64,000 nt of DNA, taken from assembly GCF_003384035.1 (NCBI RefSeq), contig NZ_QQAK01000011.1, positions 406,578 through 470,577 of the forward strand. Direction: 5' to 3'. This DNA comes from Sporosarcina sp. BI001-red. GTDB taxonomy: Bacteria; Bacillota; Bacilli; Bacillales_A; Planococcaceae. The notes below the pieces were generated by a model, which saw only the letters and a list, made by a program, of their open reading frames with translations, searched no databases and had not been told where the DNA came from. Both the position numbers and the translations under genes were made by a program. Shown here piece after piece: positions 15,186-26,317 of this stretch (positions are counted from its first letter, which is position 1; each line of letters starts with the position of its first letter).

Positions 15186-16295
15186 CTAAACATGGTCATT
15201 ACTATTCATCAACCTTACTTTATTTATCAGCTCTATATACTGTGTATCTCCATACCCGATCATCGGAAAAACCTCAAATAACTGTTTGAGCAGTTCAGAT
15301 TGAGATAACTGTTTATTTCTTGCAATGTAGTTAGTTACGGGATTATTTTCTGTCAGCATTTCTAAATATAACTTGATGGCCTGATACATTACAGGAAGCA
15401 GTACGTGAGTTGGCTTTTTATGATTCACCAACACCTCTTCATAGACAGACTGATAATTCCCTAAGGTCAGCTCTGTTTGGATGACTTTAAACTCATCCTC
15501 CCTAAAACTATTTAGATAGACTGTACCTCTATAATTCGACTGCTCCAAATAGGCAAGAACGGTCAGAAGATTCATTTGACAAAACAAATCTTCACCAAAC
15601 CACAAGACTATATAGTTATAGTTTTTCTGATTGAGCTTCGTTAATGGCTGTATCACTTTATCGCTGTAACTTTCAATAGAGTCTTCGTGTCCTAAAGCAC
15701 GTGTTTGAATGAACGTGGAATCAAAAATTGGAAGTGTCGTTTCATGGACACACATCGCTTCATTAAATGGGGCATAATCGGAATTCCCCATCAGTTTTTT
15801 ACTTTTGAACTCCTCATACATGACTTGTCCATTTAAGATATTCAACACATCCTGGTCAAATAATTGGCTCTTTTCACTTTGCAAATGTGCAACTTCTGTT
15901 TCTCTTCGAATATTTATATAATTTGCTCCCTCTTCTGAATAAGTCATAAGTCTTGCAATGGATTGAACCGGCATTTGATGACGTTGGAAATCACTTGGAC
16001 TTATACCAAAAACTTCTTTAAATGCCCTACTGTAGGCTTCTTGTGATGAGTAGTTATAGTCGACAGCGACAGTCATTATCTTGCGGTTCATTCCTAAATC
16101 CCCTGTAGACAAATATAGTCTCCGAAGCAACATGTAGCGTCTTATACTGAGACCGGTAACCTGATGAAACTTAAAAGAGCAGTAGTATGGAGAATACCCC
16201 ATATGACTTGCTAACCCATCTAAAGAGAACTCCCCTTGTAATTTGTCCTCTATCCAATCAATCATTTGCTGTATGGACTCTTTCAATTTTATCAC
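15186..16295 (-). CDS. AraC-family regulator with a large C-terminal domain
   Basis: Regulator of 369 residues with the two-helix-turn-helix AraC domain at the N-terminus (about 8-107: FSLDGLASHMGYSPYYCSFKFHQVTG; then AYSRAFKEVFGISPSDFQRH). The remaining 260 residues are unusual. IVLWFGEDLFCQMNLLTVLAYLEQ followed by a paired beta-strand TVYLNS resembles the central part of DUF1835/DUF3658 proteins, a tentative match. It is divergent from the YhgE-like permease gene. The effector is unknown. Confidence 0.78.
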   Translation of the reverse strand: MIKLKESIQQMIDWIEDKLQGEFSLDGLASHMGYSPYYCSFKFHQVTGLSIRRYMLLRRLYLSTGDLGMNRKIMTVAVDYNYSSQEAYSRAFKEVFGISPSDFQRHQMPVQSIARLMTYSEEGANYINIRRETEVAHLQSEKSQLFDQDVLNILNGQVMYEEFKSKKLMGNSDYAPFNEAMCVHETTLPIFDSTFIQTRALGHEDSIESYSDKVIQPLTKLNQKNYNYIVLWFGEDLFCQMNLLTVLAYLEQSNYRGTVYLNSFREDEFKVIQTELTLGNYQSVYEEVLVNHKKPTHVLLPVMYQAIKLYLEMLTENNPVTNYIARNKQLSQSELLKQLFEVFPMIGYGDTQYIELINKVRLMNSNDHV

Positions 16296-21995: not shown

Positions 21996-22505
21996 TCATG
22001 CTCGATATATGTTTGCCAACCCTTTTAAGAAGTTTCTAGCGTATCGATCGCCACACTCTTTATAATTACGGTGTCCTTCTTTTCTTAGAACAGCGCTCAA
22101 TTCACTTTTTGACACAGTGACACCTACGTCACTTAAGATATCAATCATCTCTTCACTAGTAAGGGAAAGTGCAATTTTCATCTTCTTAAGCAAGATATTA
22201 TTCACGTTTCTATTGTCAGCGGTCATTAAGAACTGATTTTTGATAGTTTCAGGAGTTTCCTCTTGAGACCCTCTTTTTAATGTAACACACCCGTTTAAGA
22301 AAGACTCTAGCGTGGTGTTGTCGATCATTTTAATATACTCTTCGTCTGGTGCCTCGCCATCCGAACTGTTTTTCGTCTTCGACAACATGTCCTGCACTTC
22401 AGCCTTTGTTGTTTCGATTCCGCCCAATGCGAAAATCTCCACCATTTCAATGTCTTTTATGTCCAATGCATATCTCAATCGAGTTAATATATCGTTATTA
22501 TTCAA
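21996..22505 (-). CDS. DUF1456 family protein (YehS-like)
   Basis: Protein of 169 residues made of two repeats of the DUF1456 domain (NNNDILTRLRYALDIKDIEMVEIFAL, then VNNILLKKMKIALSLTSEEMIDILSDVG). The family is widespread, soluble and of unknown function. The first candidate start is GTG, but the TTG at 22505 has a perfect AAAGGTGA five bases before it and gives the usual family N-terminus. Its terminator separates it from metN. Confidence 0.85.
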   Translation of the reverse strand: MNNNDILTRLRYALDIKDIEMVEIFALGGIETTKAEVQDMLSKTKNSSDGEAPDEEYIKMIDNTTLESFLNGCVTLKRGSQEETPETIKNQFLMTADNRNVNNILLKKMKIALSLTSEEMIDILSDVGVTVSKSELSAVLRKEGHRNYKECGDRYARNFLKGLANIYRA

Positions 22506-22895
22506 CGGTATCACCTTTACCTTCCCACTTGTTCTGTAGTTATCAGTATAAACCTTTTTCTTGTTGAATGTCTGAATACCTAATTTCTACTTGAATTTAA
22601 CTGTATGAGCGTAAGTTAAAAATGTGACTCATTAAATGATTTTGCTACTTTAAGAATGTCTTTTACTTATGGTATGGTTTATCGCATTTATCCCTTTTTT
22701 AAAAGGGAATAGTGAACACGGTTGTACTCATATCCATACTCACCCTCCCTTCAATTTTATTCTTACTCTCTAAAATATATCTAGCAGGCCTAGCCAATTA
22801 CGTAGGTTACGATTGTTTCATATAGAAAAGGATTAAAATTTGTACAACCATATTTAGCTATTGTCCATATATTAATTAAGAAAGGAGATGAGATA
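22506..22895. other. Gene-poor interval holding the outer island repeat
   Basis: No gene is seen. It contains an 18-bp copy of the rlmH 3' end at 22662-22679 and a perfect 8-bp hairpin TCCCTTTT/AAAAGGGA at 22691-22708 just inside it. The DNA is more AT-rich than its surroundings. Confidence 0.6.
22662..22679 (-). repeat. Direct repeat (att-like), outer copy
   Basis: TTTACTTATGGTATGGTT, identical to 23715-23732 and in the same orientation; two of the next three bases also match. In the rlmH sense it reads CCATACCATAAGTAA, the end of rlmH. Confidence 0.85.
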
Positions 22896-23570
22896 ATGAG
22901 TAAAGATAAGTCTTGGTATGAAGATACGTCTTATTTAAGCAATACTAACAAACAGCAGTCCGAATGCGAACACTTAAGTAAGGAAGACACCGTATCATCA
23001 GTACACCAAAAATGTATTGACCGTGCTTTTCGCCTCCCCGTATTTTTAAGTACGACAAATACATTGAATTCAAAACAGCAAAAGTTCCTAAACCGTCTAA
23101 TTTTAGAAATGGAAACTGCCTTGCTTTTCCCCAGGACGGGTCCTATTACTGAAAACTATCCAGAAAGTATTTTAACCAATGTCCGTCGATTGGTTTCATC
23201 CAGCTATGGAATGCTGGCAGTAAATTTTCGCCGTTATTTGATTGAAACAGTTAACACCAATGTAGGGCCACCTTTATCAACCACACCGTTCTGGCAAGGT
23301 TCAAGTTTTGCACAGATTGAACCAGCTATGGCTTTTCAACGGGGACTCCCTATATTATTAGTCAGGGAGAGTGATACTGACTTAACAAATGGATTATGGT
23401 TAGGAGGAATTCCTCCACTCAATACATTAATAGTTTGGGATTCCGATCATCAATCTGTCGATGAATTTTTTAATAGCATTACATGGAGAGAAGCTTTTGC
23501 ATTCTGGGTAGCTGAAGTGAGAACAGCTTACTATATTCAAACAGAACCAGACTTCAAGTACGGGTGTTAG
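22896..23570 (+). CDS. Unknown protein resembling the nucleoside deoxyribosyltransferase / TIR fold
   Basis: A 224-residue protein. After about 45 polar residues it shows a Rossmann-like pattern: first strand LPVFLSTTN (48-56), LLFPRTGPITENYPESILTNVRRLVSSSYGMLAVNFR style segment (76-112), then QIEPAMAFQRGLPILLVRE (140-158), where Glu142 followed by a helix and a strand matches the catalytic Glu region of nucleoside 2-deoxyribosyltransferases and TIR NADases. No membrane segment. Good Shine-Dalgarno (AAAGGAG). It is alone inside the rlmH-end island, with its own terminator. An NAD- or nucleotide-cleaving effector in host defence is possible; that is inference from fold pattern and location. 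Confidence 0.7.
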   Translation: MSKDKSWYEDTSYLSNTNKQQSECEHLSKEDTVSSVHQKCIDRAFRLPVFLSTTNTLNSKQQKFLNRLILEMETALLFPRTGPITENYPESILTNVRRLVSSSYGMLAVNFRRYLIETVNTNVGPPLSTTPFWQGSSFAQIEPAMAFQRGLPILLVRESDTDLTNGLWLGGIPPLNTLIVWDSDHQSVDEFFNSITWREAFAFWVAEVRTAYYIQTEPDFKYGC

Positions 23571-23660
23571 CAGTAGACCCATTCATTATTATCTAATTGA
23601 CTATAATTAATGGTCAGATGTAGGAGATTCTCATTCACTCTAAAGTACAGTTGATTAAAT

Positions 23661-23706
23661 AAAAATGAGCGATCCAGTAGATAAATTACTGGATCGCTCA
23701 TTTTTT
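23661..23706. terminator. Terminator after the island gene
   Basis: Near-perfect hairpin AAAATGAGCGATCCAGTA with its complement, 7-base loop, ending TTTTTT; A's on the other side also allow it to stop rlmH transcripts. Confidence 0.92.
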
Positions 23707-23714
23707 AAACCTCA

Positions 23715-23732
23715 TTTACTTATGGTATGGTT
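23715..23732 (-). repeat. Direct repeat (att-like), inner copy at the rlmH end
   Basis: Last 17 bases of rlmH including its stop codon, plus one base; identical to 22662-22679. Confidence 0.85.
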
Positions 23733-24195
23733 CATTCCTCATAATCCTAAACCCACGATACACTTGCTCCAGCAAAATCAGCTTCATCAACTGATGTGGA
23801 AACGTCATCTTCGAAAACGATAGCAACTCGTCCGCTCGGTTATAGACATCTGCATGCAATCCAAGGGATCCTCCAATGACAAAAGTGATTTTACTTTTTC
23901 CATAGGTCATGAGTGATTGCAGGTTTTCTGCTAGTTGCTCAGATGTTTTCTGTTTCCCTTCAATTGCGAGAGCAATGACATGGGCGTCTGGAGAAACTTT
24001 CGTGAGAATGCGGTCCGCTTCCTTTTTCTTCACGATTTCCATGTCTGCATCGCTGAGTTGTTCGGGTGCTTTTTCATCCGCTACCTCGATTAACTCGATT
24101 TTTGCATAGGCACCGAGCCGCTTTGTATATTCGTCAATGCCCATTTTTAAATACTTCTCTTTCAGTTTCCCTACAGTCACAATTGTAATATTCAC
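23716..24195 (-). CDS. rlmH: 23S rRNA pseudouridine-1915 N3-methyltransferase
   Basis: SPOUT-fold methyltransferase of 159 residues that methylates pseudouridine 1915 of 23S rRNA in the 70S ribosome, using SAM. Family sequence is clear: [22 protein letters not shown] (SAM knot), [25 protein letters not shown] and the C-terminal NEPYHK. The frame continues upstream, but the normal length and AAGGTGG fix the GTG start at 24195. Its 3' end carries the repeat that bounds the small island. In staphylococci the same gene (orfX) is the SCCmec attachment gene. Confidence 0.93.
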
Positions 24196-24274
24196 AGCGT
24201 TGTCCACCTTTTTTGAAATGTTATGCACAGAAGTTATGCACATATCCACAAGTCCATCTAGATATAGTGCCCGA

Positions 24275-25909: not shown

Positions 25910-26081
25910 GGCTCTCGTCCTTTCGATTCAATACTCTCCTTACACTTTACCCCATTTTGATCAATTTAAAAGAAATATGGAGACTTCCATAAAAAGGACG
26001 ATATTATGTAATAACTCGTTCCCATTTAGGACGCTATAAATAATGAACAGCTTGAGATTTTTAACTTTTAATTTGGGATGG

Positions 26082-26273
26082 GTAACACGTGGAAACGGGC
26101 GGGTTCTTCCTCGGAACGAGCGTGTAACACGTAGAAACGGGCGGGTTCTTCCTCGGAACGAGCGGGTAATGCGTGGAAACGGGCGGGTTCTTCCTCGGAA
26201 CGAGCGGGTAATGCGTGGAAACGGGCGGGTTCTTCCTCGGAACGAGCGGGTAACACGTGGAAACGAGCGGGTT
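26082..26273. repeat. 42-bp GC-rich tandem repeat, 4.6 copies
   Basis: Four full units at 26082, 26124, 26166 and 26208 and a partial one to 26273. A unit reads GTAACACGTGGAAACGGGCG, then GGTTCTTCCTCGGAACGAGC, then GG. Units differ at only a few bases (AACAC/AATGC). It is about 60 percent GC in AT-richer surroundings, and its length is a multiple of three, so three frames stay open. Each unit can form a small hairpin (GTTC-N7-GAAC). It lies between htrC and walJ. Confidence 0.9.
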
Positions 26274-26317
26274 CATGATTCATTCAAGCGGTCTTCCAGA
26301 CTAATCGTTCTAACCGC

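What the first reader, a model, noticed from the sequence alone, without database searches (positions are those of the whole stretch)
22662..23732. Tiny SCC-like island at the rlmH 3' end carrying one NDT/TIR-like gene
An exact 18-bp direct repeat of the rlmH end (PYHK-stop) occurs at 22662-22679 and 23715-23732, 1,053 bases apart and in the same orientation. In staphylococci, SCC elements integrate at precisely this codon stretch of rlmH and create such a second copy. The only gene between is a 224-residue protein with a nucleoside-deoxyribosyltransferase/TIR-like pattern, a fold used for NAD or nucleotide cleavage in defence. No recombinase is inside. Seen: repeat and gene. Known: rlmH as SCC target. 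Inferred: mobile origin and defence role.
Basis: partly seen in the sequence, partly recalled or inferred. Interest (0 to 1): 0.88.

Follow-up and report, generated by a model that had tools for sequence, protein, structure and literature searches.

The report
One-gene SCC-like cassette at rlmH

Summary
In detail: an exact 18-bp copy of the rlmH 3' end flanks a 1,053-bp segment with one 224-aa gene, and no third exact copy exists in the genome. It is not an isolated oddity. Downstream of rlmH, 35 of 68 Sporosarcina genomes hold 52 extra rlmH-end sites (this one included), all on the rlmH strand (opposite strand 0, shuffles 0.1 per run). They bound small segments, often with inverted ends as in SCC. 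One 783-bp cassette is 95% identical between two species whose rlmH is 75% identical, lies at different places in them, and the match stops at the repeats. No intact recombinase was found in the arrays read; relics of a Ccr-like large serine recombinase lie beside rlmH in two Sporosarcina, and intact Ccr-like genes lie at rlmH arrays of other Bacilli. Best reading: a recombinase-less SCC-type cassette, likely moved in trans; its distal end is degenerate, so it may now be fixed. The cargo has a predicted NDT/TIR-like fold and sits beside such a site in three other genomes. A defence role is unsupported. Recombinase-bearing islands downstream of rlmH are published for several Bacillota; I found no report of genus-wide arrays of tiny recombinase-less cassettes.

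The parts
23715..23732 (-). Proximal attachment-like site: last codons and stop of rlmH, plus one base
   Evidence: Exact 18-bp repeat; score 28.8 with the matrix built from 67 Sporosarcina rlmH ends
22662..22679 (-). Distal attachment-like site, same orientation
   Evidence: Exact 18-bp repeat; score 22.7; the stretch before it lacks the AAAACCGCAC...ACGG inverted end seen in many other cassettes
23716..24249 (-). rlmH, 23S rRNA methyltransferase, integration target
   Evidence: Pfam PF02590, 1.3e-58; present in 68 of 68 Sporosarcina genomes
23701..23715 (-). Cassette inner end next to rlmH (after the stop: ATGAGGTTTAAAAAA), close to the genus majority ATG.GGTTTTT
   Evidence: Majority line of 66 rlmH ends
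23661..23705 (.). Perfect inverted repeat with T-run, likely two-way terminator between convergent rlmH and cargo
   Evidence: 19-bp arms, 100% complementary; -32.7 kcal/mol for 23640-23725, z -7.8
22896..23570 (+). Cargo gene, 224 aa, predicted NDT/TIR-like fold (residues about 43-214); candidate catalytic Glu142
22680..23714 (.). Body of the cassette; GC 36.5% against 41.3% and 43.1% in the flanks
21996..22514 (-). DUF1456 (YehS-like) gene, conserved flank beyond the distal site, followed by metN, metI, metQ
   Evidence: Pfam PF07308, 1.3e-47; DUF1456 and metNIQ in the same order after rlmH islands of other sizes in G064 and G010, DUF1456, metN and metI in G083

Best explanation
The 1,053-bp segment lies between two direct copies of the end of rlmH and carries one gene, and it is likely a recombinase-less SCC-type gene cassette that would have been inserted at rlmH by a Ccr-like large serine recombinase supplied in trans. 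Shown: extra rlmH-end sites, at the stricter threshold always on the rlmH strand, lie downstream of rlmH in half of the Sporosarcina genomes and bound small segments; some of these recur in other species at other places, in two pairs with homology ending at the sites on both sides. Inferred: a circular cassette carrying a copy of the site recombines with the rlmH end, keeps the rlmH reading frame intact, and leaves one site on each side, so that further cassettes can stack in tandem. Inferred: the recombinase is Ccr-like and comes from larger elements that use the same site and come and go. For the window itself the distal end is degenerate, so present mobility is doubtful. The cargo is predicted, not shown, to be a nucleotide or NAD glycosidase of the NDT/TIR fold.
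For: Repeat and gene. Sites at score >=19 in up to about 16 kb downstream of rlmH: 52 same strand (the window's included), 0 opposite, 0 in 138,243 bases upstream, 0.1 per 2-mer shuffle (20 runs, largest 1); 35 of 68 genomes. Mobility: 783-bp cassette 95.1% identical between G025 (at rlmH) and G068 (another contig), rlmH 75.1% identical, homology ending at both sites; G010/G031 86.1% over 1,021 bp, both ends at sites, rlmH 73.0%. Ends: own left/right ends of 61 site-bounded segments match better than permuted pairs (1 of 2000 permutations as good). Recombinase: relics beside rlmH in G073 (CcrB 107 bits, PHROG integrase 148 bits) and G036 (CcrB 36.7 bits, N-terminal piece); Ccr-like genes of about 300-420 bits at rlmH arrays of other Bacilli, for example G288, where the match ends 56 bp from the rlmH-end site. 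Cargo: a same-orientation site within 0.3 kb of the cargo 3' end in 3 of 30 other cargo loci (Jeotgalibacillus sp. S-D1 at rlmH; G617 and G619 with no rlmH in the stretch held). GC 36.5% vs 41-43%.
Against: The window's distal end lacks the inverted end. No CcrB over the cut-off (900 bits) in 68 Sporosarcina genomes; the best serine recombinase scores 179 bits, and apart from the two relics none of the listed matches lies in the stretch read downstream of rlmH (lowest rows not listed, and several contigs end soon after rlmH). No clean empty site for this strain was found. In the other three cargo-site loci no distal site (score >=9) was found within 3 kb. 33 of 68 genomes show no extra site at the threshold, though G083 is counted there only because its contig ends; its next contig has one. 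In G008 the only extra site lies beyond metNIQ. Some shared segments are no more alike than rlmH itself (G024/G030 92.7 vs 94.8; G010/G007 94.4-95.3 vs 93.7), so part of the sharing is vertical.
Confidence: 0.72

Rival explanations
1. Remnant of a larger SCC-like island or integrative element that once carried its own recombinase and shrank by deletion to one gene, rather than a cassette that travelled alone.
For: Degenerate distal end; truncated Ccr-like genes beside rlmH in G073 and G036; larger rlmH islands with Ccr-like genes in other Bacilli.
Against: 13 of 61 site-bounded segments are no longer than this one, itself included, and 49 of 61 hold one or two ORFs of at least 100 aa; a cassette of the same 783 bp lies at different places in G025 and G068, so small cassettes travel as such.
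Confidence: 0.25
2. The segment came by homologous recombination (for example natural transformation) with rlmH-linked DNA of another bacterium, and the repeat was carried along or duplicated without site-specific recombination.
For: Jeotgalibacillus sp. S-D1 has the cargo homologue (81%) beside its rlmH in the same orientation.
Against: In the pair aligned base by base, homology stops at both sites and the flanks differ; sites and cassettes also lie away from rlmH; at score >=19 no site is on the opposite strand.
Confidence: 0.05
3. The cargo is an anti-phage NAD- or nucleotide-depleting effector and the cassette is a defence island.
For: Predicted NDT/TIR fold with TIR of STING and SARM1 among the best matches; single cassettes in other Sporosarcina carry DolB of Dodola (G035) or type I restriction-like genes (G073, my reading of ORFs).
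Against: No PADLOC, PHROG or NCBIfam hit and no Pfam hit above cut-off for the cargo; no partner gene; most of the 20 cassette proteins sent to Pfam are metabolic, sensory, regulatory or cell-wall proteins; named cargo relatives are in Bacillus, Paenibacillus, Clostridium and allies, which would fit a housekeeping role as well.
Confidence: 0.2
4. Chance repeat or ancestral arrangement.
For: None found for chance. For a wider rlmH-region link: in G079 a cargo homologue lies about 18 kb downstream of rlmH.
Against: Two exact copies only in 3.5 Mb, 1 kb apart; a cargo homologue directly at rlmH in 1 of 68 Sporosarcina and elsewhere in 4.
Confidence: 0.02

Closest known systems
Staphylococcal cassette chromosome (SCC, SCCmec)
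   Same: Target is the rlmH 3' end; direct repeats of the rlmH end in the same orientation; degenerate terminal inverted repeats (as described in PMC10061031; here met at genus level); variable cargo; tandem elements
   Different: No ccr genes in the segment; segments of 0.6-12 kb, most with one or two genes; core TACCATAA here; distal inverted end missing in the window
SCC-like DNA without ccr in staphylococci (PMC3637587, abstract seen), and pseudo-SCC (term met in PMC10061031)
   Same: SCC-type ends at rlmH (orfX), no recombinase
   Different: The described case is a 40-kb composite region with a resistance gene; here tiny cassettes form arrays across a genus and also occupy sites away from rlmH
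Enterococcus cassette chromosome (ECC, PMC6222049, passages)
   Same: rlmH 3' end, about 50-bp direct repeats with inverted repeats, TATCATAA core
   Different: ECC carries ccrAB and is 32 kb in the example
Large-serine-recombinase islands downstream of rlmH in Bacillota (PMC10061031, passages)
   Same: Same target, second end recognised by a match to the last ~12 bp of rlmH, composites of tandem islands (Paenibacillus pinistramenti)
   Different: Those carry polymerase-SSB, helicase and recombinase genes; the window cassette carries none
Integron gene-cassette arrays (recalled)
   Same: Tandem small cassettes, one repeat per cassette, exchange between species, recombinase acting in trans (inferred here)
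   Different: Sites are SCC-type; an integron integrase was not specifically sought
MilB/DNPH1 nucleotide N-glycosidases and TIR domains
   Same: Predicted fold of the cargo
   Different: No sequence-profile match to any PDB chain; activity unknown

Membership tests
SCC element | Integration at the 3' end of rlmH | tested here: met
SCC element | Direct repeat of the rlmH end at both boundaries, same orientation | tested here: met
   18/18 identical
SCC element | Core motif TATCATAA as reported for SCCmec and ECC | tested here: not met
   Window reads TACCATAA at both copies; at that position 45 of 67 rlmH ends of the genus have T and 22 have C
SCC element | Terminal inverted repeats | tested here: not met
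   rlmH-side end fits the genus majority, distal end does not; many other cassettes of the genus have them
SCC element | ccr recombinase genes in the element | tested here: not met
   One gene-like ORF only; no CcrB over the cut-off in 68 genomes
SCC-like cassette without ccr (pseudo-SCC type) | SCC-type direct repeats at rlmH, no ccr between them | tested here: met
SCC-like cassette without ccr (pseudo-SCC type) | Excision or transfer when Ccr is supplied | not testable with these tools
   needs an experiment
Integron cassette array | Tyrosine integrase IntI beside attI | not tested
   PF00589 hits occur in all 68 genomes; the list was cut and not mapped to the arrays
Integron cassette array | attC-type sites | not tested
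   The sites seen are rlmH-end/SCC-type; no attC model was run
NDT/TIR-fold protein | Three-layer alpha/beta fold of NDT/TIR | tested here: met
NDT/TIR-fold protein | Sequence profile match (Pfam, NCBIfam, PDB chains) | tested here: not met
NDT/TIR-fold protein | Nucleoside, nucleotide or NAD glycosidase activity | not testable with these tools
   needs an assay
Known anti-phage defence system | Match to a PADLOC model | tested here: not met
   E-value limit 10

The most novel reading that the evidence does not exclude
SCC-type recombination is an integron-like cassette system of the Bacilli: the end of rlmH acts as a platform on which tiny one- or two-gene cassettes stack in tandem, swap between species and spill to secondary sites, served in trans by Ccr-like serine recombinases of passing elements. 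The staphylococcal SCC elements would then be the large, recombinase-bearing members of this older system.
Probability: 0.5. Interest if true: 0.8.

Novelty: new variant of a known kind. Interest (0 to 1): 0.6.

Why it matters
SCC elements made MRSA, yet where they came from and how they pick up cargo is still argued over. A largely environmental genus (recalled) full of minimal cassettes with the same kind of target and ends would give a clean system for testing what a cassette needs to move, whether one recombinase serves many cassettes in trans, and how single genes become cassettes. It also points to a catalogue of accessory genes that travel this way, including a widespread uncharacterised family with a predicted NDT/TIR fold.

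Tried and rejected
Rejected: chance repeat; ancestral arrangement (a cargo homologue directly at rlmH in 1 of 68 Sporosarcina, elsewhere in 4). The tandem serine recombinases at G083:C2 lie among what I read from the ORFs as a prophage; those of G071 and G081 have no rlmH-end site in the 15-18 kb read. The own genome's 582-aa serine recombinase (C9) scores 76 bits to CcrB and has no site within the 16 kb read.

Failed or weak: my regular-expression scans for serine recombinases were too strict; they missed the 536-aa open frame in L199 that the HMM search found, so their negatives are not used and one search is. One search sampled 37 Sporosarcina and found the cargo in 2; (261 family genomes, which should include all 68) found it in 5 at E <= 1e-20, the number used. 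Two of those 5 are not far from such sites: G079's copy is on the rlmH contig about 18 kb downstream, and G061's is about 14 kb from a secondary site, with no site in the stretch held around either. One search (tyrosine recombinases) gave too long a list to map. A PDB sequence search with the cargo profile found nothing. A clean empty site for the window's clade was not found: G064, G010 and G083 are filled; G008 has metN 301 bp after rlmH and no DUF1456 in the stretch read. One search looked at 20 regions of 19 genomes chosen because they had two or more sites, so it says nothing about frequency. Cassette contents are a sample picked by eye from 95 representative island ORFs: 20 proteins to Pfam and 10 to PADLOC, 4 of them in both. 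One of the 61 segments (G010, 8,628 bp) spans the DUF1456-met core genes, so not each segment is a cassette. The printed output was cut; pairs quoted are from the visible part.

Papers: PMC6222049 and PMC10061031, passages; PMC3637587, abstract and outline; all others only as search listings. That rlmH cassettes of this kind in Sporosarcina are not in print rests on these nine searches of an open-access library only. Recalled, from no call: SCCmec end sequences, integron architecture, the catalytic Glu of NDT enzymes.

Full report
WHAT IS THERE. The window lies in a 3.52-Mb genome in 17 contigs of the genus Sporosarcina (names of the nearest DUF1456 homologues). rlmH runs on the minus strand, 23716-24249. 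Its last codons and stop are repeated exactly, 18 bp of 18, at 22662-22679 in the same orientation; no other exact copy exists in the genome. Between the copies lies one gene-like ORF, 22896-23570 on the plus strand, 224 aa, convergent with rlmH. A perfect 19-bp inverted repeat with a T-run, 23661-23705, lies between the two genes. GC of the segment is 36.5%, flanks 41.3% and 43.1%. Beyond the distal copy come DUF1456 and metNIQ, which also follow rlmH, after islands of other sizes, in G064 and G010, and as far as metI in G083, where the contig ends.

THE GENUS. rlmH is present in all 68 Sporosarcina genomes. I took the region downstream of rlmH in all 68 (about 16 kb where the contig allowed; several end sooner) and scanned it with a matrix built from 67 rlmH ends. 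At score >=14 there are 64 further copies on the rlmH strand and 3 on the opposite strand in 983,316 bases. At score >=19 there are 52 (the window's included) against 0, in 35 of 68 genomes; 0 in 138,243 bases upstream; 0.1 per run in 20 shuffles of 2-mers. 33 genomes show none at that threshold; one of them, G083, only because its contig ends at rlmH, as its next contig has a site. In G008 the only extra site lies beyond metNIQ. A looser exact pattern over whole genomes also finds sites away from rlmH, including three in a row in G085 and one on contig C15 of the own genome; the same pattern read backwards gives 2 hits in the 68 genomes.

CASSETTES. Consecutive sites bound 61 segments of 627-11,854 bp, median 2,141: 50 at rlmH, in 34 genomes, and 11 at other sites; 49 of the 61 hold one or two ORFs of at least 100 aa (G008 and segments outside 300-12,000 bp were left out, and the 8,628-bp one of G010 spans core genes). 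By eye, and in the majority lines, the ends read TAA(a/g)TG(a/c)GGTTTT at the rlmH side and AAAACC(g/t)CA(c/t)TTAGA......ACGG before the distal site: an inverted repeat. A segment's own two ends fit each other better than ends of other segments: mean score 6.42 against 5.80 (sd 0.19), reached by 1 of 2000 permutations; 21% of segments score >=8 against 0.9% of random genomic pairs. A second type with ends TGGTAAAAC/GTTTTACCA is visible in G074. The window cassette fits at the rlmH side but not at the distal side.

MOBILITY. Megablast among these loci finds matches at different places. The clearest: 783 bp with a Staygreen-like gene (its homologue L060_0 matches Pfam Staygreen), 95.1% identical between G025 at rlmH and G068 on another contig; the two rlmH genes are 75.1% identical over 477 nt, and homology stops at both sites. 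G010/G031 also match from site to site (86.1% over 1,021 bp; rlmH 73.0). Other shared stretches end at a site on one side or on neither (stretch vs rlmH identity): G007/G031 88.6 vs 74.2; G065/G035 93.8 vs 79.5; G004/G065 91.7 vs 83.9; G007/G066 89.1 vs 77.2; G023/G080 93.9 vs 83.6; G033/G066 96.5 vs 91.6. Against: G024/G030 92.7 vs 94.8 (but at rlmH in one and elsewhere in the other), G010/G007 94.4-95.3 vs 93.7, G072/G027 97.1 vs 93.5, which fit descent. rlmH is a single yardstick gene; a core-genome comparison was not made.

CONTENT. Of 95 representative island ORFs I sent 20, picked by eye, to Pfam: metal-binding YbjQ, chemoreceptor, SLH amidase, Staygreen, MFS transporter, sigma factor and its DUF4179 neighbour, F420 ligase, RlaP, M24 peptidase, two histidine kinases, LysM-3D, hydrolase, DUF4317, Schlafen AlbA, methyltransferase, an AAA protein, and two with no hit. 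Of 10 sent to PADLOC, one is DolB of the Dodola system (G035), two have weaker hits, seven none. So the sample looks like general accessory genes, not defence islands.

RECOMBINASE. No recombinase lies in the window cassette. In 68 Sporosarcina genomes no protein reaches the CcrB cut-off, and ten serine recombinases chosen from the genus score far below the Ccr cut-offs. But beside rlmH in G073 an open frame of 342 aa matches CcrB residues 248-531 (107 bits; PHROG integrase 148 bits), and in G036 a short piece matches CcrB 6-53 (36.7 bits): relics. In a sample of 398 Bacilli genomes 75 have a CcrB-family match at E <= 1e-60 and 9 pass the cut-off. Several of about 300-420 bits lie at rlmH arrays outside Sporosarcina: G288 (match ends 56 bp from the rlmH-end site, convergent), G389 (N-terminal part missing), G427, G351, G127, and a fragment in G360. 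In the 20 regions that I fetched because their genomes had two or more sites, 16 hold rlmH, and 15 of these hold at least one further site, all on the rlmH strand. So the kind of enzyme that would be needed exists at this site in relatives, and Sporosarcina keeps traces of it. That it moves the cassettes in trans is inference.

PRIOR WORK. SCC at rlmH is classic. ECC of Enterococcus has the same target and motif (PMC6222049, passages). PMC10061031 (passages) reports large-serine-recombinase islands downstream of rlmH in Bacillota, with composites of tandem islands. SCC-like DNA without ccr is known in Staphylococcus (PMC3637587, abstract). The searches that I made listed no report of rlmH cassettes in Sporosarcina or, by title and abstract, of arrays of one-gene recombinase-less cassettes. 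Hence a new variant of a known kind.

Noticed in passing
window 26080-26274: Minisatellite-like array, period 42, 4.6 copies, 94% matches
   Followed up: no
G000:C15:137775-137792 (L173): A further rlmH-end-like site in the own genome, far from rlmH, after a gene that I read as an ABC-transporter ATPase
   Followed up: partly
L174 (G085), L184 (G061); similar DNA in L186 (G086) and L178 (G067): A recurrent secondary site at the 3' end of a ~970-aa gene beside a gene that I read as Nudix, with three exact sites in a row in G085
   Followed up: partly
L212 (G221), 0-72 bp after rlmH: Two sites only 72 bp apart with inverted ends: what looks like an empty mini-cassette
   Followed up: no
L068 (G080:C33) 16021-16170 and L161 (Jeotgalibacillus sp. 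S-D1) 1662-1736: Fragments of the rlmH 3' part away from the intact gene; the S-D1 fragment lies about 7 kb downstream of rlmH
   Followed up: partly
G083:C96 end and G083:C51 start: The assembly breaks just after rlmH and the two contigs overlap by about 127 bp there, as if the site had more than one continuation
   Followed up: no
L070-L075, L077-L080 (G073, G062, G072, G075, G015, G027, G014, G009, G002, G013): A similar 635-666-aa serine recombinase in ten Sporosarcina genomes, not in the stretches read at rlmH; the one scanned scores 157 bits to CcrB
   Followed up: no
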